This document shows, piece by piece, positions 16,248-56,941 of a stretch of DNA of 64,000 bases (position 1 is its first letter; each line of letters begins with the position of its first letter). The notes under the pieces are model-generated. The model was not told where the DNA came from, made no database searches, and saw only the letters and a program-made list of their open reading frames with translations. Position numbers and translations under genes: made by a program. The DNA is from Lathyrus oleraceus (taxonomy: Eukaryota > Streptophyta > Magnoliopsida > Fabales > Fabaceae): contig NC_066585.1 in assembly GCF_024323335.1 (NCBI RefSeq), positions 84,308,614-84,372,613 of the forward strand, written 5' to 3'.

Positions 16248-16254
16248 TATAAAG
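16248..16254 (+). promoter_or_regulatory. Possible TATA box of Ogre LTR
   Basis: TATAAAG in CATCACATATAAAGCC, followed 70-130 bases later by a pyrimidine-rich stretch (TTTTTCTCTCAACTTTCTTC). The copy in the 3' LTR is at 34001-34007. It is the best candidate I find in this long LTR, but no other promoter evidence is visible. Confidence 0.4.
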
Positions 16255-19920: not shown

Positions 19921-19938
19921 TGGCGACTCTGTTGGGGA
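19921..19938 (+). promoter_or_regulatory. Ogre primer binding site (Arg tRNA type)
   Basis: TGGCGACTCTGTTGGGGA starts two bases after the LTR. TGGCGACTC is complementary to a tRNA 3' end of ...GAGTCGCCA, as reported for Ogre elements (arginine tRNA). Confidence 0.88.
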
Positions 19939-26520: not shown

Positions 26521-26783
26521 TAATTTTTGTTTCAATTTTATCTGCATGAAAGCCTTACGTGTTGCCCGACACGTAATGGTTCATTGTAAGGGCCACCTCA
26601 TGTTTCATTTTGCAAGTTTTGCATCATCAATAAATGGATGTTTTTCAGTTAAAAGCGGTGTTCCCTGTTTTTCATTTATTTTTACAGTTTAAAAATAAAA
26701 ACAAAATAAAAATGGCAATGTTTTCATTTTTCTTTTTGTCTCGTTCCGGTTCTAAAGCAATGCATGAATCCACATTCATGCAG
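26517..26783 (+). other. Probable Ogre intron between protease and RT (267 bp)
   Basis: Donor GTAATA at 26517 overlaps the gag-protease stop codon. The acceptor CACATTCATGCAG ends at 26783, after a pyrimidine-rich tract (TTTTTCTTTTTGTCTCGTTCC). Removing it keeps the reading phase: the upstream exon ends after codon position 2 and the downstream exon starts at position 3, so the stop disappears and the frame enters RT. Ogre elements are known to have a partly spliced intron at this place. The exact sites are my inference from consensus and phase. Confidence 0.7.
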
Positions 26784-28440
26784 ATGCGATTTCTCGCCGG
26801 ATCTCATTGATAACAATCCTGTTACACCCTCATATGACTTCGACAATCCAATCTATCATGCCGAAGAAGAAGGCGAAGAAGATTGTGAACTGCCAGGGGA
26901 ATTAGCCAGGTTGTTGAAACAAGAGGAGAAGGTGATTCAGCCGCATGAAGAGCAAATTGAAATTGTGAACTTGGGTACCGACGAGGTCAAGAAAGAGGTA
27001 AAAATCGGGGCTGCTTTGGAGGAAAGTGTTAAGAGCAGACTGGTAGCATTGTTGAAGGAGTATGTCGACATCTTTGCCTGGTCTTATCAAGATATGCCAG
27101 GTTTGGATACCGATATTGTTGTGCACAAGCTACCGTTGAGAGCAGATTGTCCTCCAGTGAAGCAGAAGTTGCGCAGAACTCGACCTGATATGGCGATGAA
27201 GATTAAAGAGGAGGTGCAGAAGCAATGGGATGCTGGTTTCCTTGCTGTCACTAATTATTCGCCTTGGGTCGCGAACATTGTGCCGGTGCCGAAGAAAGAT
27301 GGGAAAGTGAGAATGTGTGTAGACTACCGAGATCTGAACAGAGCTAGCCCGAAGGATGATTTTCCATTACCTCACATTGATGTGTTGGTAGACAATACAG
27401 CTCAATTCTCGGTGTTTTCCTTCATGGATGGCTTTTCTGGCTATAATCAAATCAAAATGTCGCCAGATGATATGGAGAAAACAACGTTCATCACACCGTG
27501 GGGCACTTTTTGTTACAAGGTGATGCCATTCGGTCTCAAGAACGCTGGTGCTACTTATCAGAGGGCCATGGTGACTTTGTTTCATGATATGATTCATCAT
27601 GAAATTGAATGCTATGTTGATGACATGATAGCAAAGTCCCAAACAGAAGAGGGGCATTTGGTAGATCTGGCCAAGTTGTTCGACCGGCTGAGACAGTTCA
27701 GACTGAGGTTGAATCCGAATAAGTGCACTTTCGGAGTGCGATCCGGTAAATTGCTGGGGTTTATTGTAAGTGAAAGAGGAATCGAGGTTGATCCTGCTAA
27801 AGTAAAAGCGATAAGAGAAATGCCTGAACCAAGAACAAAGAAGGAGGTTCGTGGTTTCTTAGGTAGATTGAACTACATTTCACGGTTCATATCTCACTTA
27901 ACAGCCACGTGTGAACCAATATTCAAGTTGTTAAGAAAAGATCAAACGGTCAGGTGGAATAATGATTGCCAAGTGGCATTTGAAAAGATAAAAGAGTATT
28001 TGCAGGAGCCTCCGATTCTGATGCCTCCTGTGGAGGGATGACCGTTAATTCTGTACTTGACGGTCCTCGAGGGGTCTATGGGGTGTGTATTGGGGCAGCA
28101 TGACGAGTCTGGTCGAAAAGAGCATGCCATATACTACCTTAGCAAAAAGTTTACCGACTGTGAAACAAGATATTCACTGCTCGAGAAAACTTGCTGTGCT
28201 TTGGTCTGGGCTGCTCGCCGACTGAGGCAGTACATGCTGGTTCATACCACTTTATTGATTTCCAAGATGGATCCAATCAAGTACATTTTTGAGAAGCCAG
28301 CATTGACCGGACGGGTTGCGAGGTGGCAAATGATTTTGATAGAATATGATATACAATATACCTCTCAGAAAGCGATCAAGGGGAGTGTATTGTCTGATTA
28401 CCTCGTCCAACAACCTATTGAGGATTATCAACCGATGAAT
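26784..28440 (+). pseudogene. Ogre reverse transcriptase and first RNase H
   Basis: Open from the acceptor to 28041, then a TGA (28039-28041) within GRPL-type sequence, then open again in the same frame. RT motifs in order: IFAWSYQDMPGLD, HKLPLRADCPPVKQKLRRTRPDM, YSPWVANIVPVPKKDGKVRMCVDYRDLN, SFMDGFSGYNQI, FGLKNAGATYQR, and the catalytic YVDDMIAKS near 27610-27640. The thumb region ends with FLGRLNYISRFI. The first RNase H follows (LGQHDESGRKEHAIYYLSKKFT, then CCALVWAARRLRQYM). In this lineage the first RNase H is degenerate and is backed by a second. Only the one stop breaks the segment, with no frameshift. Confidence 0.9.
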
Positions 28441-28494
28441 TTTGAATTCCCTGATGAGGACATCATGTTTCTCAAATCGAAAGATTGCGAGGAA

Positions 28495-29082
28495 CCAATC
28501 CCGGAGGAGGGGCCTGACCCTGAATCCGAATGGATTCTGATGTTTGATGGGGCCGTTAACGTGAATGGAAGCGGTGTTGGTGCTGTTTTGGTTACGCCGA
28601 AAGGATCCCACATTCCTTTTGTTGCCCGGCTAACATTTGAGTGCACCAACAACGTGGCTGAATACGAAGCTTGCATATTAGGGATTGAAGAGGCGATTGA
28701 TTTGAGGATCAAAAACCTTGTCATATATGGAGATTCAGCTCTGGTTGTGAATTAGGTTAACGGAAAATGGTATACGCATCAGTCTCATTTAATTCCATAC
28801 CGGGATTATACGAGGAGATTGTTGACGTTTTTCACCAAGATGGAGATGCATCATGTGCCTAGAGAGGAGAATCCTTTGGCAGATGCTTTGGCTACTCTGA
28901 TTGCCTTGATTAAGGTACAATGGTGGAATCAGTTCCCCAGTGTTGAGGTGGGACGTCTGGATAGACCGGCTTATGTGTTTGCTGTTGACACCGCGCCTAA
29001 TGATGAGAAGCCGTGGTATTACGATATCAAGCACTATCTAGAAACTCAAGAGTATCCTGAGGGAGCATCCAAGAAGGACTGA
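28495..29082 (+). pseudogene. Ogre second, archaeal-type RNase H
   Basis: Same frame as RT. It shows the four acidic positions of RNase H: MFDGAVN (Asp), AEYEA (Glu), YGDSAL (Asp) and ENPLADALATL (Asp). A second RNase H after the first is a mark of the Tat lineage to which Ogre belongs. It is broken by TAG at 28753-28755, right after the GDSALVVN motif, and by TGA at 29080-29082. The TAG sits where the family usually has glutamine, so a single C-to-T change would explain it. Confidence 0.85.
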
Positions 29083-30264
29083 AAGACTCTGCGGAGGTTG
29101 GCCATGGTGTTCTACTTGAATAAGGATGGGGTTCTGTACAAGAGAAATTTTGATTGGGTCTTGCTCAAATGTGTTGATGACAAAGAAGCAAGCCAATTGA
29201 TGAAAGAGGTTCATGAAGGATCGTTCGGTACCCATGCCAGTGGGAATGCAATGGTAAAGAAGCTGCTGAGAGCAGGTTATTACTGAATGACAATGGAGGC
29301 CCAATGTTTTAATTTCGTGTGGAAGTGTCATAAATGCCATATTTATGCTGACAAGGTGCACGTGCCTCCAAATCCATTGAGCTTAATGTCGTCTCCGTGG
29401 CCGTTCGCTATGTGGGGCATTGATATGATCGGAAAGATTGAGCCTACAGCTTCGAATGGGCACCGGTTCATATTAGTGGCTATCGATTACTTCACCAAGT
29501 GGGTGGAAGCAGCCTCTTACACGAACGTGACGAAGCAGGTCGTCGCCCGATTCCTCAAGAGAGACATCATTTGCAGATATGGGGTTCCCGAAAGAATCAT
29601 TACTGATAATGGTTCTAATTTGAATAACAAGATGATGGCAGAACTGTGCCGGGAATTCAAAATCGAGCATCACAATTCTTCTCCCTATCGTCCGAAGATG
29701 AATGGGGCGGTTGAGGCAGCCAATAAGAATATAAAGAAGATTGTGCAGAAGATGGTTGTGACCTATAAGGACTGGCATGAGATGTTGTCGTTTGCATTGC
29801 ATGGGTATCGAACGTCGGTGCGTACATCTACTGGGGCAACACCTTTCTCGTTGGTATATGGAATGGAAGCCGTGTTACCTGTTGAGGTTCAAATTCCCTC
29901 TTTGAGAGTCCTGATGGACGTGAAGTTGCAAGAGGCGGAATGGGTAAGAACCCGGTACGAAGAGTTGAGCCTGATAGAGGAAAAGAGGCTGACAGCCATT
30001 TGTCATGGGCAGTTATACCAGCAGCGAATGAAGCGTGCTTTCGACCGAAAGGTACGACCTCGGGTGTATCACGTAGGTGATATGGTGCTGAAGAGGATCC
30101 TTCCTCCTCAAAACGATCGAAGGGGCAAATGGACACCTAATTATGAAGGTCCATTCGTGGTCAAGAAGGTTTTCTCTGGCGGAGCCTTGTTGTTAACAAC
30201 CATGGATGGCGAAGATTTTCCATCCCCTGTGAATGCGGACGCAGTTAAAAAATACTTCGTATAA
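29083..30264 (+). pseudogene. Ogre integrase
   Basis: Same frame. The zinc-binding part is KEVHEGSFGTHASG followed by WKCHKCHIYAD, split by TGA at 29284-29286 where the family has tryptophan. The core shows WGIDMIGKIEP (first Asp), ERIITDNGSNLNNKMM (second Asp) and PKMNGAVEAANKNIKKI (Glu). Beyond it are HGYRTSVRTSTGATPFSLVYGMEAVLP and the C-terminal GPFVVKKVFSGGALLL. It ends at a normal TAA (30262-30264). All catalytic residues are present; only the one stop disables the zinc region. Confidence 0.9.
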
Positions 30265-31369
30265 AGAGACCCGCTGGACGAAAAGAATAAAATAGTCCAG
30301 GCAAAAATGGGCATCCCGGCGAACCAAAAAAACAGAAAGAAAAGGTTCGGGCAAAAATTAGGGATAAAATGAAAATTTGTACACCCGGCAAGTCGAAAAC
30401 CTGAAAAGGGCGGCTTGGGAAAAAAAGGGTATCCCGGTGGGCTGAAAACCCGAAAGGGCGGTCCAGGCAAAAGAGGGATTGAAACGAACAACTGCGTCTA
30501 GCATGATCGTTTGCGCTTTGGTTAAAGCATCATGGATAATACCCGACAGGGATCAATCAGAAACGTCTTGTTCAGAAGGCAGAAAGCACGGAGAGTCTGA
30601 GGACATAGGGGGTGTAACCGAGTTGGAACTCGATGAGATCACGGTTCCACATTGCCATTAGGATAGATTTTTCCTTTTGTGCGCAATTACCTCTTTTCAG
30701 GAATTGCTTCCTTTGTATTGCTCATTTGAGCCACACTTTTTCAATCAATAAAATGCACATTCAGTCAAATAATTTTGTTTTTGTTTTTCATTACCGCTTT
30801 GATTGCAAAAACATCCAATTGTTGTGATAAAGAATCTTGCATTTTAAGACATACAGGTCCCTTCCAATGCATGTATATAAGATTGAAGATTTGAAATCTT
30901 ATTCGGAAGGTTAGGTGACCCAAGTGTTGAAATCTTGACACGCCTGGGGCACGGTTTTATCTAACGATCTCTTTTGCAGGAGTTGTTAGATATGTTCGCT
31001 CACTTGTAGGGTATGGTGTGGAGGTTGTTGACAAAGCAATCCCCATGGAGTCCGATCAGGGACGAATGAGTAGAAAAACGATGAAAAGACGACGAGACGT
31101 ACGACGATCCTTGAGAATTAATCAAGAAGACTCTTCAAAGTCTGAAGATTGAAAAGTCTGTATAAGTCCCAGGAGGTTGCTCTCCGTCAAGTACGAAGTG
31201 GTCGGGGATACAAGGTGATGAATCAGAAAAGTCCAGACGAGTCGGGGAGTTCTCAAAGTTGGAAAGCAGACATTGGAGTTGGATATTGGATACCAAGGTT
31301 CGGCGAGTCGACGGGTGTTCGGTACCAGACTTTCCTCAACTCCCCAAGCAGAGTCGGAATGACTAATCC

Positions 31370-31880
31370 CCAGCAGATCCAAGGTCTGTGGCTTCCCTAG
31401 CAGGGTCAGGATGGTTATCCCCAGCAGGTTTTAGATCAATGCTTCCCCAGTCGCCAGGCCTGAAGGTTGCTATTTCCCAGCGGAAGTATCTGTGTGCGGT
31501 GGTGTCCCAAGCGGAGTCGGGATTTATATCTACAGGAAGTCAAGGACTGTTGTTATCCCCACATAGTGCGTTGGTGGTTTCCCCAGCAATGTCCCCAAGC
31601 GGATCAGGTGCAGAGGAGGTTTTCCCCAGCGAGGGTTGTCTTTTCTCAGCAGCAGTGCTATTCCCCAGCAGGGTGGAAGTCGGAGTGTTGACGAGTTCCT
31701 CAGCAGAGTGTCTCGAGCTCCCCAGAAGAGTCCCTTGAGGGGGATATCTTTTATACATTCATCATATAGAATAAGAATAAGAAGGAATAATCCCCAGCTA
31801 AACGCGAAGTGTTCGTTGGCTAGGGTCGAATAGAGAGTAGCCGGCTCAGGGCTTGTTATCCCCAGCATGGGTCGTTGGCA
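31370..31880 (+). repeat. CCCCAGCAG-type degenerate tandem array
   Basis: More than a dozen copies of TCCCCAGCAGG or close forms (TTCCCCAGCGA, CCCCAAGCGG), spaced about 25-50 bases apart, with intervening G-rich segments such as GTCAGGATGG. The spacing is irregular, so it is a degenerate array rather than a clean satellite. Confidence 0.85.
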
Positions 31881-31934
31881 CGCGTGCCGACTCACTTATC
31901 ACGGTTCCTTTTTGCCGATGCTGATAGGCATGAA

Positions 31935-32480
31935 GAGTTTTCCGGTATCTAGACCGAGATGGTATCCAGACCGAGATGGTAGTCAGACCAGTCTTCTGGT
32001 ATCCAGACCGAGGTGGCGTTCGGGCCAGTTGATGGGTATTCAGACCAGTTTTCCGGTGTCCAGACCGAGGTGGTATTCAGGCCAGTTTCCGATTTCCAGA
32101 TCGAAGAAGTTCTCAACAATCAGGACGAAGAACTTACGGCAGTCAGGCCAATTTTCCGATTTTCAGATCGAAGAAGTTTCCAACAATCATGTTGAAGTAC
32201 TTGTGGCATCCAGGCCAATCTTCCGGTGTTCAGACCGAGGCGGGTATTCAGACCGAAGCGGCAGTCAGGCCAATTTTCCGATTCTCAGGTCGAAGGAGCT
32301 TCCGAAGTTCAGATCGATGCAGCTTGTGGCACTCAGGCCAGTTTCCCGGTATCCAGACCGAAGTGGTGTTCAGACCAAAGAGGTGTTCAGACCGAAGTGG
32401 TGTTCAGGCCAATTCTCTCGGTGTTCAGACTGATATCAATTCTCTTATATTCCGATGTTCAGTATACAGACTGACGAGCG
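31935..32480 (+). repeat. CAGACCGAGGTGG-type tandem array
   Basis: Repeated blocks combine TCCAGACCGAGGTGG, ATTCAGGCCAG and TTTTCCGAT, with a basic period of 18-24 bases arranged in longer units of about 70-110 bases. Sub-blocks alternate CAGGCCA and CAGACC. The array is open in all three forward frames, giving long apparent ORFs that are not genes. Confidence 0.9.
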
Positions 32481-32739
32481 GCATTCAGGCCATGGTTCTT
32501 GTGTTACCGTTTATCCGGAAAAAATTCCTGTTTCGGTATTCAGGCCGGCTTTCTCCGTACCAGACGGGTTCTTCTTTAAGATTGTTTCTTTGCCGATTCT
32601 GACGGGCATTGTTAATTATTTTCCCATCATAGTGCAAATTGTTCGTCTGTTCTTGGTATTCAATCACTCTTCACCCTGATCATCTGAAAGTCGAGGCTAT
32701 TCATATCGACAGGTTCACAGTGGATTGAATAGGGGCAAC

Positions 32740-35700
32740 TGTAACACCTCAAAATTTGCCCTCCTCTATTGGGACTAGCTTAACATATTGCATTTCATTT
32801 GTAGGTCATTAGTCATTGCATATTTGCATATCATGTGGCTACATTGAGCAAGTCATCCTCCTAGGTCTTGATCAGAAGATAAAGAGGTTGAGATTCAAGC
32901 TGAGGGTTTCATTGAACTGATCACTAATCATCTGAGGGTTGGTGCTTCAAATTAGGGTTTCTTGATTCCTCAAGGGGATTGAGCTTCATCTTGGTTGAAA
33001 TGATACATCATCATCATCATGGTTTTATCATCACCAAGAGATTCATAATGCTTGATCAGATTCCTTGGGATTAGGGTTTTGACCTCTGGTCAACCCTAAT
33101 CATCTGAATTGTGCCAATCAGGGCTGGTCAAAGAGATGGGGTTTTCAATGGATATGGGGATCATCATATGATTATATTGAGCTTATGAAAGCTAGGGTTT
33201 CATCATTGAGCTATTTCATCAGGAGTTTGAAGCTCAAGTTCATCTATGCATGGCCAGTTCATCTGTCAGTCAACAAAAGTCAACCACAAGTCAACTGATG
33301 GATTTGGAGGTGGGAGAGGGTTAGAGACACTTCATTCATGTCCAAACAAGTTTCATTTGACATTTCAAACGTCAAGAATGAAGAAAATAAAGTCAGATGA
33401 AAACTTTCCAAAAATAGAAAGTGACTTGTAATTCAAAACTGCCAAAAATGGAAAGGTTTTCTCCTCAAAATTACATGTCCAAAAATGCTTCAAATGAAAT
33501 TTTGTTCAACATGAAAGTTGTAGATATTGCTCTCACCTTTCCAAAAAGTCCAAGAACATGAATTTATCATGTGTGGTTGGCAAGTTATGATCAAATCATT
33601 GTCAAGAAAAGTTGAATTTCAAAGTTGGATAACTTTTGATTCAAATGGCCAAATGGAGTGAGACCTTTTTGAGCAAATTTCTTTTGATGTCCTTTATCCA
33701 ATTCAAGCATTACATTTCATTAAAACTCATCACACAAAAAGTGCATTTTTCAAGTGAACCTATTTTGAAATTTGGAGGGAAAAAGGTGATTTTGAGAAAT
33801 ATGCATTGTTTTCACGTAATTCCACTTGCATTAGCTTACAAACATCATTTTAAACTTGCTCCAAACCAGAAATTGCACTGTTACATTGATTTTCACAAGG
33901 AAGGGTGAATTGGCCAATTTGCCATTTAACATGAAACTTGATTTTCACTTAAACACTTGCATTAACACTAATTAGGATTAACAACATCATTAGCATCACA
34001 TATAAAGCCATAATCATAACTGTTTTCTGATTAACCATAACAGAATTGTGAATTCTAGATCTAGATCCAAAACTTTTGCATTTTTCTCTCAACTTTCTTC
34101 ATCAATTTTCTTCATTCTTTTTGCCTTGCCTTCGATCAATTCATCATCTACATGCATATTGGAAGTGGATTGAAGCAAAATCTTGAAGAAATCAAGCAAA
34201 ATCGTGGATTGTTACAAGAGTGTTCAACAATGGCAAATGGAGATTTCATCGTGTTCAAGCACTGTTGAGCTAAAGCCTTGCATTCATTCATCTTCCACAT
34301 CATCATAGAACTTCTGTTTTGCACTTCCATGGCCTGAAACACGCAAATCAACTTCTGCCAATTCTTGAAGGTGAGTTTTCGACTTTGATAATTCATGCAA
34401 TTAATGGATGTGTTTGATAGATCTTGGAACATAGGTTAATCTGCACTTTGAATCGTTAATTTTCATCAAGTATTGAACAAGTTATGCTGATTGGAAGTTT
34501 CACATGTGAAAATATTTTGGATCGATTCTCTTAAATTAGGAAGAATTAGGTTAAATCAATGTGAGATTGTTGATGTACATTAGGAGATCTTTCCAATGAT
34601 GTATGGTTTGTGAATTTTCGTGACAAAAAGTTCATGCGCTGGGTTTGGATGATGAACATATGATGAATGTTTGAAATTTTTTCCAGAAACCTTGTTAGAT
34701 CCAGTTTTTCGCGTTTTGCATGGCTGTTGGTGTTAGTCACACTGTAGCGCGCCAGGATTTGAAATTGGTCTGGCTTCGATCCTCCACTAGAGCATTTCCA
34801 CTTTTGCCTTTTCCATTTTTTCTTCATATATGCTATACATATTTCACCATGCCATTTCATTTTTTTTTATTTTTTCTTCCATTCAAAATTCCATAACTCC
34901 TAAACCATTAATCCAATTGACATGATATTTTTTGTGCCAAGATCCTTGTAATCTCTACTATTTTTTGATTATTTTTGCAAAAATTGTGCACGTGTGGGTT
35001 ATGACATGGCCTAGGGTTTGTTCACATGTATTCTTTCATGCACCTTGCTTGTTGTTTTGATCATGAAATGATGATGCTTGATCCAAAATTCTTAAAATTT
35101 TGCATGTACAAACTAGAGACCTTAATGGACATTTTGGCTTTGAGTTTGTGATTTTATCATTCCTGGTTTGTGAGATATGAGCTGTTGAATCTAGGTGTGA
35201 CAATTTGTGTCACACCATTTCTTGTCCTACTTCCTGATTTTATTTGCCATGCCATATGAACTTGAAATGAGCTGAATTTCTGCATGTTGAATCTTCTGGA
35301 TGTTAGGATGTCATGTGAATATTCCTGGAATTTTTGAATGCATTTCCTATTTGTTTGAGAATTTCTCCCCTGTTTGACCAATTGTGAACCTTTTGTGAGT
35401 CATGATCTCATATGTTTTGTGAAATTCTTGTGATTTATTGGATGGACTTTAAATTTGGCATGTGTATTATAGACATCTTGAAGTTTGCCATGGTTTTGGT
35501 TTCACTCATTTATCATGTTTGGTTTCTGTTTTATGATTGCTTGAAGTTGATGCATGATTTAATGCCTTGTATGAGCTTGTTTGAGTATGCTTTGGCTTGA
35601 TGAATTTAATTGACTTGCTTCCCTTTATTAAAATGGCCTGAAATTTGGTGTGATGATCCTTTAGTGAGTTCTGTTTAGCCATGAATTTTTTGGGAATTTA

Positions 35701-37673
35701 TTGAATTGTTTGTGAGTTGATTTGAATTGGATCTTTTTGTTTGGTCCTATGAGGTTCTAAATTGCATGCTTGGCCTTCTATGCTTCATGAAATGATGTTG
35801 GTTGATGATATGAACATGAGACCAATTGGATTTGATTCTTATTTGATTGATCTTGATTTTTGATAATTTTCATGTTCTGTTTTGGATTATTGATCCCCCT
35901 TTGACCCTAGGCCATGTCCTAGTGGTTAGTGCTTAATGTTTGAGTTATGTTTTCAGGACAAAAAGCATATGGCATGGAGGAATTAATTCACTTGGCTTGA
36001 GTTGTTTGTTTGATTGATGTTGATTAACATTAAGTTTGTTTTGTAGGTGGCTTCTAAGTCATTTGTGTTGAGCATTGGCTTATGCTTTGCTTGATGCATT
36101 GCTTGTGTACAGTTAACTGTTGACTTTTAGTTTGTCTGTTTGACTGTTTAAGCTGTGTAATGATTATGTTAGATTGATTTCAGGTACCTTAGTTGCTATA
36201 GTTCATTTTGAACTTGCTTGGGCTGTTGCTTGGTTGTATAAACCATTTGAGGTATAACATTTCTTCTCCATGTAGTCTGGAAGACCTGGCCTGTTATTGG
36301 GTCAGGCACCTGTCTGAAGTCCTCCTTAAGAGGCAATGCTTGTGCTTGTTTATTTTTGTCCCCAAGCAGGAAAAGACCTTTGATAAGGTAATTGGCAGAT
36401 ACAAGAGATGTGCAATCCATCTCCTGCTATTCAGTTGAGTCATCCCTCTGCTCACACAACTGGTGTTGATGCATTGTGGATCCTAACCCAAGATCCTTGT
36501 ACAGTTGTACAGTTGAGTCAGTGTCATAAGTGTAGAAGGGTTCCCACTTTCTGAACCCACACTTCATTTGTCTAAAGCTCTCCCTGGCCAGGGATAAGAG
36601 CTGTGAGGCACACCCCTCACTTCCTATTTCATCTGCTTCACCCTAACTCTCAATGTTAGGGTTAAGAGCTAACATCACCTGATACAGTTGGTTTGATTTG
36701 GCAGCCTAACCCTTGTGTGAGCCCACCTTGTCTGGATATAATGTGTGCTAATTGTGAATGTTTGCTTTGTTTTGATTATGCTTGCATGCTTTGCTTTGCC
36801 TGGTTAGGATTAGCTTGCTGCCTGAACAAGTTAGATAGCAACCTTAACTTAGGGATGATATGCATGATAACATCTAGGCTCGAGTCATAGTCTCCCTAGT
36901 TGTGTCTCCCTCTGTATCTGGTTAAGCTAGTCTTTCTCCCCTGTTAAGGGGAACTACGTTGCCCTGATCCTCATACCAGATGAGGTACGTAGGCAGGAGG
37001 TCGTACGAGATCTCTCCGGGCACCCTTTTTCTTTTGTGTGTGTTTGCTTGACAGTTGCTAGGCTCGAGTGCCAGACTCCTTAGTAACTTGTTGTTTGTTA
37101 TCCTTCTTGTGTGTGTTAGGAGACGGATGTAAGCCCAGCGATTGGCATTCCGTATCCTATTATTGTGTGCTTGGAGTCCGGTATAAGTCCATCAAGTGGC
37201 ATCTGGTTTCCAGTGTGGGTTTGTTTGGTTCGGAAGCTGATGTAAGTCCAGCGATTAGCATTCGGGTTCCCTGTTTGCCTTTTTGTGTTTTGTTTTGTTT
37301 CGGCGTGCGTGAGCCGAACTACGGTAGCTCTGATTCTCATTCCAGATGAGATACGTAGGCATAGGATGCGATATCCTAGCGAGCCCTCTCCCCTCTTCTC
37401 CCACCTGTGTTGTTTGTGTGTGTGATGTTTGTTTTAGCAACCTTTTCCTATCTTTTAGAGCGTGGATCCCGTCGAGTACGACAGATGCGTAGGGGTGCTA
37501 ATACCTTCCCTTCGCATAACCGACTCCCGATCCCATTCTCTTTGGTCGCGAGACCATGTCTTTTCCAGGTTTACTTCGAGCGTTTCCTTTCCCTCCTTTG
37601 GGATAAATAACGCACGGTGGCGGCTCTGTGTTGTTTTGTTTTAGCCCGCCGGTTGTTTTTCGCGGATGCGACA
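32740..37673 (+). repeat. Ogre 3' LTR (4934 bp)
   Basis: Near-identical partner of 14984-19918, with matching possible TATA (34001-34007) and hairpin module (36937-37358). Target duplication GTGAG follows at 37674-37678. Confidence 0.97.
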
Positions 37674-37678
37674 GTGAG

Positions 37679-37912
37679 TGATGGGCATGTTGGGTGATTT
37701 TGTATGCACAGAAAAGTTAAATCGGATAGCCTAAGCAGCCATTACACTCCTTGATGTAATCCCAATTCTTGTAAGCAATTGAAATCTGGGTATCTAGTAG
37801 ATGTGACACCGCGTTGCTGGAAACGAACAAACTGCTCCCGTTGATAGTTACTATCTTCAGTTTGGAAAATAATATTTCCAAATTGCATTTCTTGATGTTG
37901 GTTCTCCGCCAT
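37679..37912 (-). pseudogene. Athila ORF-B, N-terminal part
   Basis: Starts at the ATG complement 37910-37912 (MAENQHQEMQFGN). It contains QREQFVRFQQRGVTSTRYPDFNCLQELGLHQGVMAA, which lines up with QRQKFEELAEREMHPNFYADDCAMTVLGL in ORF-A. A stop at 37731-37733 interrupts it, and the Ogre insertion cuts it at the GTGAG duplication. The reading continues at 14983. Length, motif order and position after pol show that it is a second member of the same gene family as ORF-A in one element. Confidence 0.78.
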
Positions 37913-38340
37913 TTTGATTGGTAGGTAGAAAAAAAGGAGAAAGGAAGAGGGGATGAAATTTTTTGTATAGAATGGTTTTTGGGATGATGTGGTGTAGGAA
38001 GAAAAATGTGGTGAAGGTATTTAAAGAAAGAGTTTTGAAATAGGGAGGAGAAGTTGGTGAGAAAAAAAAATTAATGGGGATAAAGAGGTGAATTGAATGG
38101 GGGTAACGGTCATGACATGGTTACGAGGTAGCAATGTGTCACGTTCGTGACAGCATAACGGTCAAAAATATTTACGAGAAAGCAAGTTGTCACGTTCGTG
38201 ACAGCATGCGTGACGGGCGTCATGGGGGTGTTGCGACCGTGACAACATGCGTTACGCTCGTCACACCTCTGATCATGCAACGGTCAAAACGTTCGTCACG
38301 ATGCAGGGTGGCAGCATGCATTGGTTAAAATTCGTGACAA
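37913..38340 (-). promoter_or_regulatory. Promoter-like region upstream of ORF-B
   Basis: Read on the - strand: two perfect palindromes TGTCACGTTCGTGACA (38188-38203 and 38137-38152) and other TGACG/CGTCA motifs, then a TATA-like TTTAAATA (38018-38025), then about 100 bases rich in C, T and A without G runs (ACCACATTTTTCTTCC, CCCCTCTTCC, TTTCTCC), then the ORF-B ATG at 37912. The order and spacing are those of a plant core promoter and 5' leader. The palindromes resemble the TGTGACGTCCGTCACA motif of this element's own LTR. Activity is inferred. Confidence 0.45.
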
Positions 38341-38775
38341 GTTTTGTTTTATTATTATTATTATTATTTTATTTTTTTGAATTGCCATGACCATAAATAT
38401 CAATGCTACTTTGACTTTATAAATTGTGTCATGGATGCTACTTTACTACACCATAGAATATATATTTTTTCTCTAATAAGCAAAAATACAGGTGGTAGTA
38501 TATAATATTAGGAGTAGTGTATACTTGTACGTGATCAGAAATTTAGCATGTAAGTAGTAGGATACAATATATATCAGCATTGGTAATTTTAGACAGTGCA
38601 TAAATCAAAATGAAATTTAATTTAACCAATAATGTCAGTAGCTTCATAAAAATAAACATAATGTAATATTTGACTGAAGATAAAATAAAACATGCGAAAA
38701 AAATCCTAAGATTAAAAATATTGTCAAACGAAACTATAAATTTCCTAAGACTAAAACTAGTTAACTGCAATTCTT
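38341..38775. other. AT-rich spacer between ORF-A and ORF-B
   Basis: No gene. It starts with an ATT trinucleotide run (38349-38368) and continues AT-rich to the ORF-A stop. Nothing else is recognised. Confidence 0.6.
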
Positions 38776-40056
38776 CTAGCCACTTGTAGAATTTCTCGTC
38801 GGAGGAGCAAAGGAATTGACACGGTGTAGCAACTCGTGAAATTGATTTGTCATTCTACTCATGTGTTCCATAAATTCATGTCCCATCATAGTTAACTCTT
38901 CTCTAATGGCATCTTGTTCTGACATCAAAGCTTGAATAGCGGTATTATAATCAGTTTCGGGCATATGATGTCTAAAATCAAGTACTGCCGATTCTGCGGA
39001 CGGGATAGGATGAGGTGGAGAGGCAGCATCATGGTAACCAGTTGGTGTCTGCGGATCAGACTCAGCATTAGGAATCTGGTTGTCAAGAATCTCATAATCT
39101 TGGATGGTTTCAACAGATCTAACAGGAGAAGGCATTTCATCCAGGTTGTAGAGCCAATTATTTCGATTATGGACACTAGTCATCGGGCTAGGCATGGTGA
39201 ATAGGTAAAAAGCTTGGTTGTTAATTAATAGTTCAAACTCTTCAGGTCCAAGGTTTCCTATAAACATAGTGTTGAAAAGGAAATTTATATTCATAGGCTG
39301 AATACCGCAAAAAGGGTTCAAATCAAGCATGGGTTGGCGCAATCCAATAGCATTAGCAATCATAGTTATCAATCCCCCTATTTGAATCGGTGCACGGTCA
39401 TCTTGAATAAGGAGGTCAAAACTCGCCAACATATAAGTGGCACCATTCACTGGACGATTCTGGGAAGCACAAAATATTATGAAAAGTTCATCACGTGATA
39501 CTGTGGTAATGTTTGAACTTTTCCCAAAAAGAGTGTGTGCTAGGATCTTGTGGAAATAACGAAAAGCTGGGTTATGTATGTTTCCAGAAAGAAACTCATG
39601 TTCCTCAGGTTCGTCATTTCCCGTCAAAATTCCCCAAAAATGCTCAAGCTCTCGATATTCAAAGAGGTCCTCTTGGTTCATGGTGAATGTGTCAAAAGAA
39701 GTAGGCAACCCTAAGAGGTTAGTAAATTCTCTAATGTTATACTGATACTCCATATTGAACATCCTGAATTGAATGAAACCTCGGTTTATTCCTTTCCCAT
39801 GGTTCGATAAATAAATCAGGGAGCTAAGGAATTCTAGAGTTAGCCTCCGGTAAGTGACAAATTATCTCCGAATAGGAGTGGTTTCCCACCCTAATTGATT
39901 CAGCAGATATAGGACACTATCTCTTAGCCCAAGTACGGTCATTGCACAATCATCAGCATAAAAATTTGGGTGCATCTCTCTCTCAGCAAGTTCTTCAAAT
40001 TTTTGTCTCTGAACTCTCCCTCGGAAATTAATACCCATGTGATCAATATGTGCCAT
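38776..40056 (-). pseudogene. Athila ORF-A (ORF-1-type protein after pol)
   Basis: The start is probably the ATG at 40056 (MAHIDHMGINFRGR). TAA at 39862-39864 interrupts after ETTPIRR, and the frame is then open to 38776. Ordered motifs: YRRLTLEFLSSL, FIQFRMFNMEYQYNIREFTNLLGLP, LEHFWGILTG, NIHNPAFRYFHKILAHTLFGKSS, ELFIIFCASQNRPVNGATYML, IQIGGLITMIANAIGL. The C-terminal third is Pro/Ser/Asp-rich, then Met-rich with a probable coiled coil (EQDAIREELTMMGHEFMEHM). It matches the Athila ORF-1 family. No signal peptide or membrane span is evident, which speaks against calling it an envelope. Length about 426 codons. The single stop would come from one C-to-T change if the lost residue was Gln. Confidence 0.82.
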
Positions 40057-40069
40057 CAGGTCAGTGTTA

Positions 40070-40089
40070 ACTAAAGAAAAGAAAAACAA
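40070..40089 (-). promoter_or_regulatory. Splice-acceptor-like tract before ORF-A
   Basis: On the - strand TTTTTCTTTTCTTTAG ends at 40071, 15 bases before the ORF-A ATG at 40056. The tract is a good match to a plant 3' splice site. Splicing onto a downstream ORF is known for some plant retrotransposons; here it is inference. Confidence 0.45.
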
Positions 40090-40212
40090 GAACTTTAGTC
40101 AGGATTTGGCCAGATGCCGAAAGAAGAAAAGAAGAAAAATTTAATAAAATAAAGAAAATGAAGAATGAAAACTGAATAAAATCAAAAGAATAATCAAAGA
40201 AAAATAAAAATT

Positions 40213-40240
40213 TGTGGGTTGTCTCCCACGAAGCGCTTTG
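40213..40240 (-). other. Conserved-looking hairpin after Athila pol
   Basis: On the - strand AGCGCTTCGTGGGAGACAACCCAC, with stem GTGGG/CCCAC (40215-40219 and 40226-40230), lies about 70 bases after the integrase stop. I recall closely similar sequence (AGCGCTT...GGGAGGCAACCC) at this place in other plant Athila/Tat elements. It may act in RNA 3'-end formation or packaging, which is unproven. Confidence 0.5.
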
Positions 40241-40305
40241 TTTAATGTCGCAAGCTCGACAGAAAACTATTAAATGTTAATCTATTAATTTTAGAGACAA
40301 TACGT

Positions 40306-41345
40306 CTAAGTGCAGGACTTGCGGTCTTCATTGTTTTCAGCATAATGATAATGTTTTAGACGCTGCCCGTTTACGATAAATGATTCAATAGATTTTCCTT
40401 TAATTTCTACAACCCCACTAGAAAATACATTAGTGATTTTGAAAGGGCCAGACCACCTAGAGCGTAGTTTTCCTGGGAATAACTTAAGTCTAAAGTTAAA
40501 CAATAGGACTACATCGCCTTGTTTGAAAGTTTTCCTTGATATACGTTTATCATGCCATTTTTTCGTTCTTTCCTTGTAGATTTTAGCATTTTCGTATGCA
40601 TCTTGTCTAAGTTCCTCTAATTCGTTTATATCTAGAATTCGCTTTTCATCGGCGGCCTTATAGTTTAAATTTAAATTTTTAATAGCCCAATAGGCCTTAT
40701 GTTCTAACTCCACTGGGAGGTGACACAATTTACCATAAATAAGCTTAAATGGGGTTGTTCCTATGGGAGTTTTATAAGCGGTTCGATATGCCCATAAAGC
40801 TTCGGGTAATTTTGATGACCAGTCTTTCCTCGATGTAGCGACAGTTTTTTCCAATATCTGTTTAATTTCTCTATTAGACACTTCCACTTGTCCACTAGTT
40901 TGAGGATGGTAAGGTGTTGCTACTCGATGTTTTACACCATACTTAAACAATAATTTTTCGAGTATTTTAGATATGAAATGAGATCCCCCGTCACTGATGA
41001 CTATTCTTGGGACACCAAATCTTGGAAAGATTATATTCTTAAAGAGTTTAATTACTACTCGTATGTCGTTTGTTGGAGAAGCTATAGCCTCAATCCATTT
41101 TGATACGTAGTCAACTGCTACGAGTATGTACTTGTTACCAAAAGAAGGTGGAAAAGGTCCCATGAAATCTATTCCCCACACATCGAAAATTTCTACTTCC
41201 AAAATGCCTTTTTGTGGCATTTCGTCACGTCTAGATATGTTTCCTATGCGTTGACACCTATCGCATTTCTTGACAGCGGTATGTACATCCTTCCATATGT
41301 TTGGCCAATAAAGACCGGCTTGTAGGATTTTAGAGCAGGTTTTGG
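40306..41345 (-). pseudogene. Athila integrase
   Basis: Open from about 41382 down to 40306. The zinc-binding end is [11 protein letters not shown]. The core is [28 protein letters not shown] (first Asp), [13 protein letters not shown] (second Asp) and [22 protein letters not shown] (Glu), followed by [22 protein letters not shown] and the C-terminal [31 protein letters not shown]. This is the typical Athila integrase. The catalytic triad is present. The frame is separated from RNase H by a frameshift near 41340-41360, so no continuous pol exists. Confidence 0.9.
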
Positions 41346-42797
41346 ATGTACTGCATGTCCACCATAGGGAGCGGAATGACAATGTTGGATTATACTTTCT
41401 ACCTCTTCTTCAGGTATACAGCGACAAAAAATACCATCGGAGCCTCTTTTGAAAAGTAAAGGGTCGTCCCAGTAATAATGTTTTATGTCATGGAAGAATC
41501 GTTTCTTTTGTTGGTAGGATAAATCAAGTGGAACCATTCCGGCGGCTAAATAATTGACAAAATCAGCGTACCATGGTGTAACGCATACAACCAAGGTGGT
41601 CTCTACCTGTTTGTCAGCTCTATTTTCTTCCAAATTAGCTATACGTTTATCGTACGAGAAATCATCGTTGATCGATGTTCTTTCCGGTTCCAGGTTTTCG
41701 AGTCTAGAGAGGTGATCTGCTACTACGTTTTCAGTTCCTTTTTTATCTTTGATTTCCAAATCAAATTCTTGTAGCAACAAGATCCACCTTAGGAGTCTAG
41801 GTTTAGCGTCCTTTTTTGTTAAGAGGTACTTAATGGCAGCGTGATCAGTGTAAACGATTATTTTAGCTCCGACCAAGTAGGAACAAAATTTATCTAGTGC
41901 AAATACTACTGCTAAAAGTTCTTTCTCGGTCGTGGCGTAATTCATTTACGCTTCATCTAGAGTTCTACTCGCATAATATATGACGTGAAGTTTTTTATCC
42001 TTTCGTTGTCCTAAAACAGCGCCTACGGCGTAGTCACTTGCGTCACACATTATTTCGAAAGGTCCATTCCAATCCGGGGTCTGCATTATGGGCGCGGAGA
42101 TCAATGCTTGTTTAAGTGTTTGAAATGCTTCTAAACATTTATTGTCGAAGATGAATTCAGCGTCTTTCATTAATAATTCGGTTAAAGGTTTAGTTATTTT
42201 AGAGAAATCTTTAATGAATCGTCGGTAAAAACCGGCATGTCCTAAGAAGCTTCGTATTTCCCTCACAGTTTTCGGAGGTTGAAGGTTTTCGATTACTTCT
42301 ATTTTGGATTTGTCTACTTCAATTCCTCTATTTGATATGATGTGTCCTAAAACAATTCCTTCTTGTACCATAAAGTGACATTTTTCCCAATTGAGTACTA
42401 GGTTTACTTTTACACATCGTTCTAGAACTCTTTCTAGGTTTTCAAGACATTCTTCGAAGCTTTGCCCGCATACGGAAAAGTCATCCATAAAGACTTCCAT
42501 GATGTTATCGAGAAAATCGGCGAATATTTCCATCATGCACCTTTGGAAAGTTGCAGGAGCATTGCACAAGCCAAACGACATTCGTCGATAAGCGAAGGTA
42601 CCAAAAGGACATGTGAACGTTGTCTTTTCTTGGTCATCAGGATGAATTGGTATTTGAAAGAACCCTGGGTAACCGTTCAGATAGCAGAAATGAGAATGCT
42701 TGGCTAGTCGTTCTAACATCTGGTCTATGAATGGTAAAGGAAAATGATCTTTTCGGGTTGCTTTGTTTAGCTTTCTATAATCAATGCACATTCTCCA
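41346..42797 (-). pseudogene. Athila reverse transcriptase and RNase H
   Basis: RT from 42791 (MCIDYRKLNKATRKDHFPLPFIDQMLERL), QIPIHPDDQEKTTFTCPFGTFAYRRM, FGLCNAPATFQRCMMEIF and catalytic FMDDFSV. RNase H has FEIMCDASDYAVGAVLGQRKDKKLHVIYYASRTLDEA, then a TAA at 41946-41948 where the family has Gln, then [24 protein letters not shown] and [33 protein letters not shown] at 42798-42800 separates RT from the protease frame. A frameshift near 41340-41360 ends this part. The enzyme sequence is otherwise well kept. Confidence 0.9.
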
Positions 42798-43913
42798 TCA
42801 CGATTCAATTCGTTTGGTTATAGTTTCTCCTTTTTCATTTTCGATCACTGTTATACCTCCTTTCTTTGGTACTACGTGTACAAGACTAACCCATTTGCTA
42901 TCGGATATAGGATATATGATACCTGCCTCTAATAACTTCGTTACTTCCTTCTTCACTACCTCACTCATGATTGGGTTTAGTCTCCTCTGATGTTCCCTAG
43001 AAGTCTTACAGTCTTCTTCTAGCATGATGCGGTGCATATAAATAGAAGGACTTATCCCTTTAAGATCGGTGATGTTGTATCCTAATGCGGTTGGACATTT
43101 TCTTAAGATATGTAGGAGTTTTTCGGTTTCGAGTTTTCCTAGGTCTGCATTGACTATTACTGGTCGTTCAAGTTCTAAGTCTAGGAATTCATATCTCAGA
43201 TTTTTGGGAAGTGTTTTCAGGTCGAGGGTTGGTTTCTTAAGGCATTGCGTAGGATCCGATGTTATTGCTAAACATTGGTTCAGTCTGTCTTCTACACGAT
43301 AGTCGGACAATTCGTCATTTTCGAATTCTGTTTCTTTTATGCATTCATCGATGATATCCATGAAGTAACATGTGTCTTCTATCGCAGGTGCTTTCAAAAA
43401 TTGGGAAAGAATAAACTCAATTTTCTCTTCTCCTACTTCGAAAGTGAGTCGTCCTCGTTTTACGTCTATGATAGCACCGGCAGTTGCTAAGAAGGGTCTT
43501 CCCAATATAATGGGGGTAACTTCATCTTCTCTTATGTCCATAATTATAAAATCGATGGGAATGTAGAATTGACCTATGCGTACGGGAACGTTTTCAAGAA
43601 TTCCTACGGGATATTTAACGGAACGATCTGCTAATTGCACAGACATTTTAGTTGGTCTTAATTCTCCCATTTCAAGTTTCTTGCATATGGACAAGGGCAT
43701 AACACTGATATCGGCTCCTAAATCGCATAAAGCTTTGTCTATGACAAATTTTCCTATATGACAGGGTATAGAAAAACTACCAGGATCTTTAAGTTTAGGA
43801 GGCATATTTTGGATTATTGCGCTACACTCAGCAGTGAGTGTAACAGTTTCGTTATCTTCAAGTTTCTTTTTATTAGATAAAATTTCTTTTAAGAACTTAG
43901 CATATGAGGGCAT
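42798..43913 (-). pseudogene. Athila protease and linker to RT
   Basis: 371 codons are open in this part. The protease shows the Athila form of the active-site box, CDLGADISVMPLSICKKL (D-L-G in place of D-T/S-G), and later PIILGRPFLATAGAIIDVKRGRLTFEVG. After it comes the linker with ITDLKGISPSIYMHRIMLEED and the first RT segment KWVSLVHVVPKKGGITVIENEKGETITK. It joins the gag frame upstream without a shift (PSYAKFLKEILSNKKKLED). It ends at a TGA just before the WRMCIDYRKLN motif. Confidence 0.88.
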
Positions 43914-45676
43914 TTGTGTAATAGCTTCTGTAAAAGGAATTGTGACGTTTAATTGTTTCAGTAGGTCAACAAATTTTTTAAATTGGCCCGCGTTTTTGGT
44001 TTTAATTAGCCTTTGAGGATAAGGGATAGGTGGTTTGTAAGGCGGTGGAGGTACATAAGGTTCCTTTTTTTCTACGGTTTCCTTATTACACTCTTCCTTT
44101 TCCTTAGGTTTACCTTCTTCCTCAGTTGACTTTTTAGAGTTTTGGTTCTCAATCCTTGGGTCAGATGGTCCTTCTACCTTTGTACCACTTCGTAATATAA
44201 TTGCATGAGCGTGGCCTTTCGGATTAGGTTGTGGCTGTCCAGGAAATGTACCAGTTGGGGCAGCAGTAGACGCTTGTTGTTAAGATACTTGCGAGATTTG
44301 TGTTTCAAGCATTTTGTTATGGGTAGCCAGGGCATCTACTTTACTTGCTAGTTGTTTAATCTGTTCGCTAGTGTGTACATTCTGGTTTAAGAACTCTTTA
44401 TTGGTTTGGTGTTGAGAAGCTATGAAGTTCTCCATCATGATTTCCAAGTTGGATTTCCTAGGAACGTTATTGTTAGGTGTAGATGGGGTCGGCTTTTGAT
44501 ATCCAGGTGGTACAGCTGGAGCTTGACTGGGAGCTTGACCTGGTGCGTATAAAGCGTTGTTACTTTTATACGAGAAATTAGGATGGTTCTTCCAGTTTGA
44601 GTTATAGGTATTCGAGTAAGGATTTCCTTGAGCATAGTTCACCTGATCTGTTTGATTCATGTTAGGAGTTGACAATTTGTAGGAGTGTGACCTTGAATTC
44701 CACAGACCTCGCAATTTTGAGTTACGGCAACCACGGTGGCTGGAGGTGATACATTTAAACTTTCAATTTTCTGGGCAAGAGCATCCACTTTTGCATTAAC
44801 ATGATCAAGGCTACTTATCTCGTACATGCCACCTTTTGTTTGAGGTTTTTCTACCACTGTTCGGTCGCTTCCCCACTGATAATGATTTTGAGCCATGCTC
44901 TCGATAAGTTGATAAGCGTCGGTGTAAGGTTTATCCATAAGCGCACCACCGACGGCGGCGTCTATTGTTAACCTTGTGTTGTACAAGAGACCATTGTAGA
45001 AGGTGTGAATTACTAACCAGTCCTCTAAACCATGGTCTGGGCAAAGTCTCATCATGTCCTTGTATCTTTCCCATGCTTCGAAAAGAGATTCGTTATCTTT
45101 TTGCTTAAATCCATTTATCTGGGCTCTCAACATAGCTGTTTTGCTTGGAGGAAAATATCGGGCAAGAAAGACTTTCTTCAACTCATTCCATGTGGTGACT
45201 GAGTTGGAAGGAAGAGACTGAAGCCATCTTCTAGCTTTATCTCTTAACGAGAAAGGAAAGAGACGAAGTCAAATTGCCTCTGAAGTGACACCATTAGCTT
45301 TAACAGTGTCAGCGTATTGGACAAATACGGATAAATGAAGGTTTGGATCCTCGGTAGGATTTCCAGAAAATTGATTCTGTTGCACTGCCTGCAACAGCGA
45401 AGGTTTAAGTTCGAAGTTGTTCGCTTCGATTGCGGGTGGAGCAATACTCGAATGCGGCTCATCCTACGATGGAGCAGCGTAATCTCGAAGAGCACGAGCT
45501 GGTTCGGCCATCGCTGGTATCGTTAAAGGAAGGAGATTTTTGAGATCAGGAACTTCGATTGGAGGAAGATTGTTTCTAGCACGATACTCCCGAATTCGTC
45601 GTAATAATCGGAGATATCGTTCGACGTCTTTGATTTTTAAGTTGTACGGCTCACCTTGTGAGCGAGTGTGTGGCAT
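43914..45676 (-). pseudogene. Athila gag
   Basis: Starts at 45676 (MPHTRSQGEPYN). Stops are at 45464-45466 and near 45268-45270 (TGA in AIRLRLFPF-type sequence), a frameshift near 44665, and TAA at 44280-44282. The gag core reads LRLFPFSLRDKARRWLQSLPSNSVTTWNELKK-type sequence and VFLARYFPPSKTAMLRAQINGFKQKDNESLFEAWERYKDMM. The knuckle is CEVCGIQGHTPTNC near 44670-44715. The region NPKGHAHAIILRSG near 44190, before the protease, is typical of Athila gag-pol. Confidence 0.88.
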
Positions 45677-45762
45677 ACAAATCAACGAAAAAGGAAAAAA
45701 ATAAAAATTGCCTTAGTCTCTACAGCGTAACAGAAGAGTTACGATATCGACTAAATAAAAGT

Positions 45763-45780
45763 CCCCGGCAACGGCGCCAA
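45763..45780 (-). promoter_or_regulatory. Athila primer binding site (Asp tRNA type)
   Basis: On the - strand TGGCGCCGTTGCCGGGG starts about six bases after the 5' LTR. This sequence is the known Athila primer site, complementary to aspartate tRNA. It fixes the element's orientation. Confidence 0.92.
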
Positions 45781-45785
45781 AAACT

Positions 45786-47528
45786 TGGTCGCGACTTTAT
45801 GATTCTATCGGGGTACTAACTGCAAGCGCACAGTCTAATCGCGTAGTTTTAAAAGATATCGATCCCACAGGGACTTAATGAATCAATCTACCGTTTTTCT
45901 AGGGTTACTGCGTAAAGCTAAGGCGGATGATACTTTAATGATTAGGGGAAAAAAAATAAAACTAAATTTGGATCTAGATAAAATATCAAATAATATGGAT
46001 ATCAGTATGTAGTTCGTCGTATTTGGGGAATCAAATCTTCGTTGGTCTTTTTCTTAATTTTAAAATAAGTCTTTTCAGTAGACACTATTAATTAAAAGTC
46101 TTTTCCTCAAACTCTCGCTCTGTTGAATTAGACTATGACTTTATATTTTAACGTACGCTCTCACTATTTCGTTAAGTCTAAAATCACTTTTGAAAATAAT
46201 AGAATCTATAGAAACTCCTTTTGAGAAAATACTAACCGTTTAAACGCCCTCGTCTCAAACTCTCGCTCTGTTGACTTAGATTATATGATTAAACTTAAAT
46301 GCTTAACTCTCATCCTCACATTTAACTTTTAAAAATAATTTTTGAAAATAATTAGAATTTAATTAACCTTAAAAATTGTTTTCGCCCTGATTTAAAGTTA
46401 ATGTTCAATTTACACTGTCCAGTTAAAAACTCAAACCGTCGTTCTATTGATTTTAACTTCTTTATGTCTTTTACTCTCGTACAAAAACCTTGGCATTAAC
46501 TTTGTAAATTGAGACCAGAAAAAGAGTGACTATATTCTGAAATAAATTTAAACCAACTCAATTTGGGTTCCTTTATTCCGCTTACTCTACATACCAATAT
46601 CTAAATTAATTAGCCAGACATGATAAACATGCATAAACAATAATCATGCATAAATACGGCCATATCAAACAAACAACATATATAAACAGCGGAACAAAGC
46701 ATATGTAAATTAAAACAATAAATCAATTAATTAATGAACCTGGAAAAATACTAGAAATCTGGATTTTATCTCCTACGCTTCGATGCTCGAACACTCCACC
46801 ACAAGTCGGTTGGATTTGTTCTTCACAATTCTCGATCAGATAGGAAAGTAAAAACAAGGAAATAAAATACTATGATCTAACGTAAGGTTAGATCCAGTAA
46901 AAATTACACAATATTTTCCGGTGTAGAAACTATCGTGAGAAAGTAAATTGTATGCTTCGGAAATTAAACTAAAAGAAAAGAAGAAATAAATTGCTTGAAA
47001 CATTAGGATGCTGGCAAAATTGTACGGAGAAGAGAGAGCTTCAATTGGCTTTTGTGAGGTTTATTTATATTAACCTCCCAAGATAACCGTCTCCTAGAAT
47101 GTGTCTTCAGTATGGTTCAAAGCGTCTCCGAGTGCATGAGAGAATTTAGGGGAAACCGTCCACTCAGTCACGCACGTAAAGCCCAAAATATAGGAGTGGA
47201 ATGTGTGACGTCCGTCACACTATGTGTTACGGTCGTAACACTAGGTCTTAGGACGTGGCGATCGACACGTGCTTGTTGCGGTCGTGACAACAATTTTTTT
47301 GTTCCAAACGTGGGCTGGGCTTTGGTGCTTCAGCTTGCTGCTTTTCCTAGAAAACCTTCTTTTTGCACCCCTTTTCTTTCTTTTTCACATGTGCTTTAAA
47401 TAATGATACCTGAAATAAATAATAAGAAAATGCCGAGTAATATCGAATAATATAAAATAAATTGAATCAAATAACGATATAATTTAATTAAATCAAGTCT
47501 AAAAATGTGATATAGTTTCATGTTATCA
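45786..47528 (-). repeat. Athila 5' LTR (1743 bp)
   Basis: Partner of 11020-12761. TATA box at 47062-47069 inside GAGGTT/AACCTC. The target duplication ATGTT follows at 47529-47533. Confidence 0.96.
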
Positions 47529-47993: not shown

Positions 47994-48125
<132 letters not shown>

Positions 48126-51393: not shown

Positions 51394-51407
51394 ATCTCCC
51401 ACTAGCA

Positions 51408-56940: not shown

Positions 56941-56941
56941 C

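What the first reader, a model, noticed from the sequence alone, without database searches (positions are those of the whole stretch)
37679..40056. One Athila element carries two diverged copies of its ORF-1-type gene
ORF-A (40056-38776) and ORF-B (37912-37679 continuing at 14983-13886) share the same ordered motifs: QR..F near the start, LEFLSS, FRMFN.EY, HNP..RYF..IL..T.FG, ELF, NGA/NAA and GGLIT. They differ at most positions and have unrelated C-terminal thirds. Athila elements normally have one such ORF. Two diverged copies in series suggest either an old duplication with division of labour or capture from a second Athila family.
Basis: partly seen in the sequence, partly recalled or inferred. 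Interest (0 to 1): 0.75.

Follow-up and report, generated by a model that had tools for sequence, protein, structure and literature searches.

The report
Retrotransposon with two diverged ORF-1 genes
A common pea jumping element of the Athila type carries, after its replication genes, two anciently diverged copies of an accessory gene; the first looks as if it is made by RNA splicing and the second as if it has its own promoter.

Summary
One pea (Lathyrus oleraceus) Athila element, with LTRs 98.7% identical and one shared 5-bp target duplication, carries two PF03078 genes in series after integrase. ORF-A and ORF-B are homologous over about 300 residues (28% identity; profile E 1e-56). Their C-terminal tails do not align, but models of relatives show a disordered linker and one long helix in both. 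In this copy both genes are broken; an Ogre-type insertion splits ORF-B.

It is not a one-copy accident: 18 of 20 further copies have ORF-A sequence upstream of ORF-B, as do a second family (~72% protein identity) and a deeper one. A and B form two fully supported clades, each with a Trifolium member. Other pea Athila families carry one ORF, about equally distant from A and B.

New here are upstream signals. ORF-A, like the single ORFs, has a splice-acceptor-like site just before its ATG. ORF-B has a TATA-like box 102-119 nt upstream and a G-poor leader in three families, with TGACG repeats further upstream in two. I infer an old duplication, A spliced and B from an internal promoter. No RNA evidence was available. 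Two ORFs after pol were already in print for Medicago Mtr60.

The parts
11020..47528 (-). Athila-type element, about 13.8 kb without the nested insertion
   Evidence: LTR pair, TSD AACAT, Asp-type PBS (tRNA label recalled); gag, RT, integrase domains
45786..47528 (-). 5' LTR
   Evidence: 98.7% identical to the 3' LTR over 1745 columns; ends TG..CA read
11020..12761 (-). 3' LTR
40306..41409 (-). integrase piece of pol
   Evidence: PF00665 61.0 bits, PF17921 25.6 bits
40071..40093 (-). splice-acceptor-like pyrimidine tract and AG, 14 nt before the ORF-A ATG
   Evidence: same place in 17 of 17 anchored copies
38776..40056 (-). ORF-A, PF03078; one in-frame stop at 39862-39864 in this copy
38211..38298 (-). 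stretch with 4 TGACG/CGTCA words upstream of ORF-B
   Evidence: P 0.007 in shuffles of the spacer; 5 such words in family 2, P 0.0005
38018..38025 (-). TATA-like TTTAAATA, its first base 113 nt before the ORF-B ATG
   Evidence: recurs in family 2 (102 nt) and T2 (115 nt)
37913..38017 (-). G-free leader before the ORF-B ATG
   Evidence: 0 G in the last 120 nt of the spacer; copies
37679..37912 (-). ORF-B, 5' part; in-frame stop at 37742-37744
   Evidence: no Pfam hit alone
13886..14983 (-). ORF-B, 3' part beyond the nested element; stop at 14798-14800
   Evidence: PF03078 20.5 and 37.8 bits in two pieces
14984..37673 (+). nested Ogre-like element that splits ORF-B
   Evidence: 4.9-kb LTRs 98.2% identical, TSD GTGAG; gag, RT, integrase and DUF7745 domains

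Best explanation
A lineage of pea (and probably other temperate-legume) Athila retrotransposons has carried two paralogous PF03078 genes in series between integrase and the 3' LTR since before its present families diverged. SHOWN: the pair, its constancy in the sampled copies, the depth of the A/B split, purifying selection on the C-terminal part of ORF-A between two families, and the recurring upstream signals. INFERRED: the second gene arose by duplication; ORF-A is made from a spliced subgenomic mRNA (acceptor just before its ATG), as the single ORF of sister families appears to be; ORF-B is transcribed from its own internal Pol II promoter in the spacer (TGACG repeats, TATA-like box, start about 30 nt downstream, G-poor leader). 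SPECULATIVE (about 25%): the products are soluble oligomerising accessory proteins, B with an Arg-rich nuclear or RNA-binding patch and A acidic, sharing an RNA-handling or regulatory role rather than acting as membrane envelopes.
For: Pair in series in 18 of 20 further copies, in family 2 and in T2; A and B clades 100/100 and 100/99; pair-bearing integrase clade 99/96; omega 0.25 over 171 codons of ORF-A between families; within-family dN/dS A 0.63, B 0.49, INT 0.39. Acceptor-like AG 14 nt before the ORF-A ATG in 17 of 17 anchored copies and acceptor-like sites near the ATG in T2-A and 8 of 8 C-type ORFs printed. TATA-like box 103-119 nt before the ORF-B ATG in 19 of 20 copies, 113 in the window, 102 in family 2, 115 in T2; nearest AG upstream of the ORF-B ATG 184-367 nt away in 19 of 19 anchored copies; families 1 and 2 share box, downstream block and TGACG stretch (local score 65, shuffle maximum 29).
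Against: No transcript data. TATA-like words are common in AT-rich DNA: the T2 position match has a chance of 0.021 in shuffles, and a TATA-like word somewhere in 230 nt has 0.24. Family 2 has a CAG just before the ORF-B ATG that could be a splice acceptor. The 5' part of the spacer is also conserved between families 1 and 2 (57 against shuffle maximum 44). T2's upstream stretch has other repeats. The A/B/C tree has no outside root and several long branches. Copies were ranked by ORF-B similarity, which lowers B's dN and favours copies with ORF-B.
Confidence: 0.5

Rival explanations
1. Ancient capture: recombination between two Athila lineages, each with one ORF, put both ORFs into one element, which then radiated.
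For: Arabidopsis Athila families have swapped env regions by recombination (PMC2410132, passages). A, B and the single C-type ORFs are about equally distant (24-36%).
Against: In the three pair-bearing families A and B stay in their own clades, so capture, if any, was a single old event. No single-ORF element with an A- or B-type ORF was recognised among the loci read, but few families were sampled.
Confidence: 0.25
2. The pair is ancestral, and the single-ORF (C-type) families lost one copy.
For: The unrooted three-clade tree allows it.
Against: C-type ORFs score highest against PF03078 (about 100 bits; 53 for the window's ORF-A main piece), which fits C as nearest the ancestral form; Arabidopsis canonical elements are tabulated with one env ORF (PMC2410132, passages).
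Confidence: 0.12
3. ORF-B has no promoter of its own; it is expressed by splicing to a distant acceptor, by reinitiation or by ribosome entry through the unstructured G-poor leader, or (family 2) by splicing to the CAG before its ATG.
For: CAG 1 nt before the ATG in family 2; a G-poor leader also suits ribosome scanning or entry.
Against: No AG within 184 nt upstream of the ATG in 19 of 19 anchored family-1 copies, and 247 nt in T2; the box position recurs in three families. Not exclusive of the duplication.
Confidence: 0.35
4. Chimera or nesting artefact of this copy only.
For: The region is heavily nested.
Against: One TSD and matching LTRs; the pair in 18 of 20 other copies and two more families.
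Confidence: 0.01

Closest known systems
Mtr60, Athila-clade family of Medicago truncatula (PMC2533021, passages read)
   Same: Athila clade, tRNA-Asp PBS, 12.5 kb, two ORFs of over 500 bp after pol
Single-ORF Athila elements (Arabidopsis Athila; pea C-type families seen here)
   Same: PF03078 ORF between integrase and 3' LTR; in C-type a splice-acceptor-like site before its ATG
   Different: One ORF instead of two; in 5 of 5 C-type copies followed, no second such ORF in the next 3.6 kb
Pea Cyclops elements (named in PMC4093653; details recalled)
   Same: Giant Athila-clade retrotransposon of pea with an ORF at the env position
   Different: Identity with the window's family or with C-type was not tested: no named sequence held
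Maize Grande gene23 (PMC7264820 passage, PMC11963269 reference title)
   Same: Accessory gene between pol and 3' LTR with its own promoter
   Different: Antisense, and its protein kinship to PF03078 was not examined
Foamy virus internal promoter (recalled)
   Same: Sense internal promoter for 3' accessory genes in a retroelement
   Different: Unrelated proteins and lineage; analogy only

Membership tests
Athila lineage (Ty3/gypsy) | gag, RT, integrase in Ty3/gypsy order | tested here: met
   Retrotrans_gag, RVT_1, RNase H, rve in order along the minus strand; protease only below its cut-offs
Athila lineage (Ty3/gypsy) | 5-bp TSD and PBS for tRNA-Asp | tested here: met
   TSD AACAT; PBS right after the 5' LTR. 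The Asp assignment is recalled; Mtr60's is printed as tRNA-Asp
Athila lineage (Ty3/gypsy) | placement by RT/INT phylogeny with named Athila references | not tested
   No named reference elements held; only an INT tree with the nested Ogre as outgroup
Athila lineage (Ty3/gypsy) | PF03078 ORF between pol and 3' LTR (16% of Athila elements in PMC6317226, passage) | tested here: met
   Two of them
PF03078 ATHILA ORF-1 | score above the Pfam cut-off | tested here: met
   ORF-A 53.4 bits; ORF-B 37.8 bits from its 3' piece; cut-off 20.2
Retroviral envelope | signal peptide and membrane segment | tested here: not met
   Crude hydropathy only: highest 19-residue mean 1.18-1.57 in 12 A/B-type proteins; dedicated predictors not run
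Single-ORF Athila organisation | one ORF after pol | tested here: not met
   Two in series
Internal-promoter accessory gene | capped transcripts starting in the spacer | not testable with these tools
   Sequence signals only

The most novel reading that the evidence does not exclude
A plant Ty3/gypsy lineage runs a two-step gene programme like complex retroviruses: a duplicated accessory gene in which copy A is made from spliced genomic RNA and copy B from an internal sense promoter with TGACG (bZIP/as-1-like, label recalled) repeats, so that B can be made without transcription from the LTR, for example under stress, and act on the element's own RNA or regulation.
Probability: 0.3. Interest if true: 0.72.

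Novelty: new variant of a known kind. Interest (0 to 1): 0.55.

Why it matters
What the 3' ORFs of Athila and other plant 'endogenous retroviruses' do is an open question. A lineage that kept two diverged copies, with signs of different expression, gives a natural comparison: which residues each copy keeps, and whether one copy works before or apart from the LTR. If the internal promoter is real, silencing the LTR alone would not fully switch such elements off. The families are numerous in pea: the loose first look with the window's ORF-B piece gave 20,524 candidates, of which 130 were scored.

Full report
WHAT IS THERE. An Athila-type element runs on the minus strand from 47528 to 11020. Its LTRs (1742-1743 bp) are 98.7% identical, the TSD is AACAT, and an Asp-type PBS (label recalled) follows the 5' LTR. 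Inside it an Ogre-like element (14984-37673, 4.9-kb LTRs 98.2% identical, TSD GTGAG) has inserted into ORF-B. Without that insert the element measures about 13.8 kb (arithmetic from these coordinates).

THE TWO ORFS. ORF-A (40056-38776) and ORF-B (37912-37679 and 14983-13886) both belong to PF03078. They are homologous over residues 4-309 of the A profile's first sequence (BLASTP 28%, E 8e-28; hhalign E 9.8e-57). AlphaFold models of one A relative (P0005, mean pLDDT 79.4) and one B relative (P0033, 80.2) list nearly the same elements in the same order, then a disordered linker and one long helix. Foldseek found no match at E <= 0.001 for the A model. In the window both genes are broken: ORF-A by one stop, ORF-B by two stops and the insertion. 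Open copies of both exist elsewhere in the genome.

FAMILY-WIDE. Twenty further ORF-B copies, those ranked directly below the window's own among 130 scored of 20,524 candidates, were fetched with flanks. ORF-A sequence lies upstream in 18 of 20 (both ends of it in 17; one has only its last 142 residues) and is absent in two. Integrase is upstream in 17 of 20 and the LTR downstream in 17 of 20. Because copies were ranked by similarity of ORF-B, this is not a random sample.

OTHER FAMILIES. P0009 (A-type) and P0038 (B-type), about 72% identical to the window family's proteins, are consecutive annotated genes by number. DNA upstream of P0038's gene shows the end of an A ORF (99% to P0009), a 700-nt spacer and the B start (L066). 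A PF03078 search scored 92 places of 19,918 candidates. Of the 30 given as loci, one (L034, with its upstream neighbour L064) holds INT 77%, A-like 40-54% and B-like about 38-40% to the nearest queries ('T2'). The other 29 carry a single ORF ('C-type') that matches the seven A- and B-type queries at 24-36%, with integrase pieces (53-70%) upstream in 25 of 29. In 5 of these 29, followed further, no second such ORF lies in the next 3.6 kb; the other 24 were not followed.

TREES. A 53-row protein tree gives A (22 rows, 100/100) and B (24 rows, 100/99) as clades, with six C rows beside one long row, P0052 (96/89). Left out beforehand: 13 named rows (near-duplicates, partial proteins and one RNase H protein), rows under 250 aa, and all but six C-type frames. 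Trifolium has a row in A (P0055) and one at the base of B (P0049); Vicia villosa has a B row (names). The A/B split is therefore older than these families. The tool warned that several long branches meet, so deep joins are unsure, and the root is unknown. In an integrase tree with the Ogre as outgroup, the window's family and T2 form a clade (99/96) beside C-type (92/88, not starred); family 2 is not in that tree.

SELECTION. Within the family dN/dS is 0.63 (A, 18 copies), 0.49 (B, 20) and 0.39 (INT, 17). Relative to opportunity, variants shared by 2-3 copies change amino acids less often than singletons: A 0.73 against 0.91, B 0.61 against 0.82, INT 0.39 against 0.67. For variants in four or more copies B gives 0.45 and INT 0.79 (3 variants only); numbers are small, and stop codons among shared A variants are not depleted (1.94). 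Between families, 171 codons of ORF-A's C-terminal part give omega 0.25 at dS 0.64. For B this was not possible. Published omegas for Arabidopsis Athila env lie at about 0.2-0.3 (PMC2410132, passages).

EXPRESSION SIGNALS. Before ORF-A stands a pyrimidine tract and AG, 14 nt before the ATG, at the same place in 17 of 17 anchored copies. T2-A and the 8 of 8 C-type ORFs printed also have an acceptor-like site near the ATG. Before ORF-B there is instead T[TA]TAAATA in 19 of 20 copies and the window; L021 could not be anchored (it counts to the end of the ATG, so distances to its A are 103-119 nt; window 113). Family 2 has TATAAAT at 102 nt and T2 TATAAAA at 115 nt. In 20,000 shuffles of the T2 leader 2.1% had such a word at 106-122 nt and 24% somewhere in 230 nt. 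The leader is poor in G: the G-free run before the ATG is 29-226 nt in 19 anchored copies (at least 149 nt in 15 of 19) and 214 nt in T2; the nearest upstream AG lies 184-367 nt away in 19 of 19, and 247 nt in T2. The longest G-free run in 2000 shuffles of the window's spacer was 83. Family 2 differs: 2 G in the last 120 nt and a CAG just before the ATG. Families 1 and 2 share the box, a TTTCTTCCTACA-CAC block about 30 nt after it, and a TGACG-rich stretch upstream (P 0.007 and 0.0005); the last 330 nt align at 65 against a shuffle maximum of 29, the 5' part at 57 against 44. T2's upstream stretch carries other repeats.

HOW IT MOST LIKELY WORKS. Shown: two conserved, anciently diverged genes in a fixed order, with different upstream signals. 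Inferred: A from a spliced subgenomic RNA, B from an internal promoter. Speculative: soluble oligomerising proteins. Six of six B-type proteins scanned have basic runs of 3-7 K/R (one of six A-type); the six A-type proteins have net charge -5 to -37, the B-type -3 to -5; none shows a membrane segment by this scan.

LITERATURE. Two ORFs after pol in an Athila family of Medicago (Mtr60) are in print (PMC2533021, passages), so the two-ORF layout itself is not new. That the two are paralogues with separate expression signals was not seen in the passages read of PMC2533021, PMC6317226, PMC7264820, PMC11728184, PMC2410132, PMC4093653, PMC11963269, PMC11410651, PMC3276544, PMC2669250 and PMC1142308, nor in the listings of searches. 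Most subscription papers, including the Cyclops and Calypso originals, were not seen.

Noticed in passing
window 20537-22717 (+): The nested Ogre-like element has an ORF upstream of gag with a full-length DUF7745 domain (PF24924, 312.9 bits).
   Followed up: partly
window 2182-9708 and 50051-58280: Two related elements with copia-like ORFs flank the Athila; their LTR pairs are 97.5% and 93.8% identical.
   Followed up: no
window 63119-63491: Tandem, self-complementary repeat of about 53 bp with GAGGGCGC/GCGCCCTC palindromes.
   Followed up: no
window 47934-48134 and 60466-60670: Long (TA)n runs, one followed by (GA)n, just outside the Athila and further right.
   Followed up: no
LTR pairs 11020/45786 and 14984/32740: The nested Ogre's LTRs are slightly more diverged (1.8%) than those of the Athila it sits in (1.3%), which may be sampling error or differing rates.
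   Followed up: no
L029-L058: Abundant single-ORF Athila families in pea, in two integrase subgroups, with ORFs of about 424-433 aa starting MPPKR or MSPKR in most open copies.
   Followed up: partly
P0030 (annotated pea protein): An annotated protein with an RNase H domain matches 15% of ORF-A at 88% identity, apparently a chimeric gene model or fusion.
   Followed up: no
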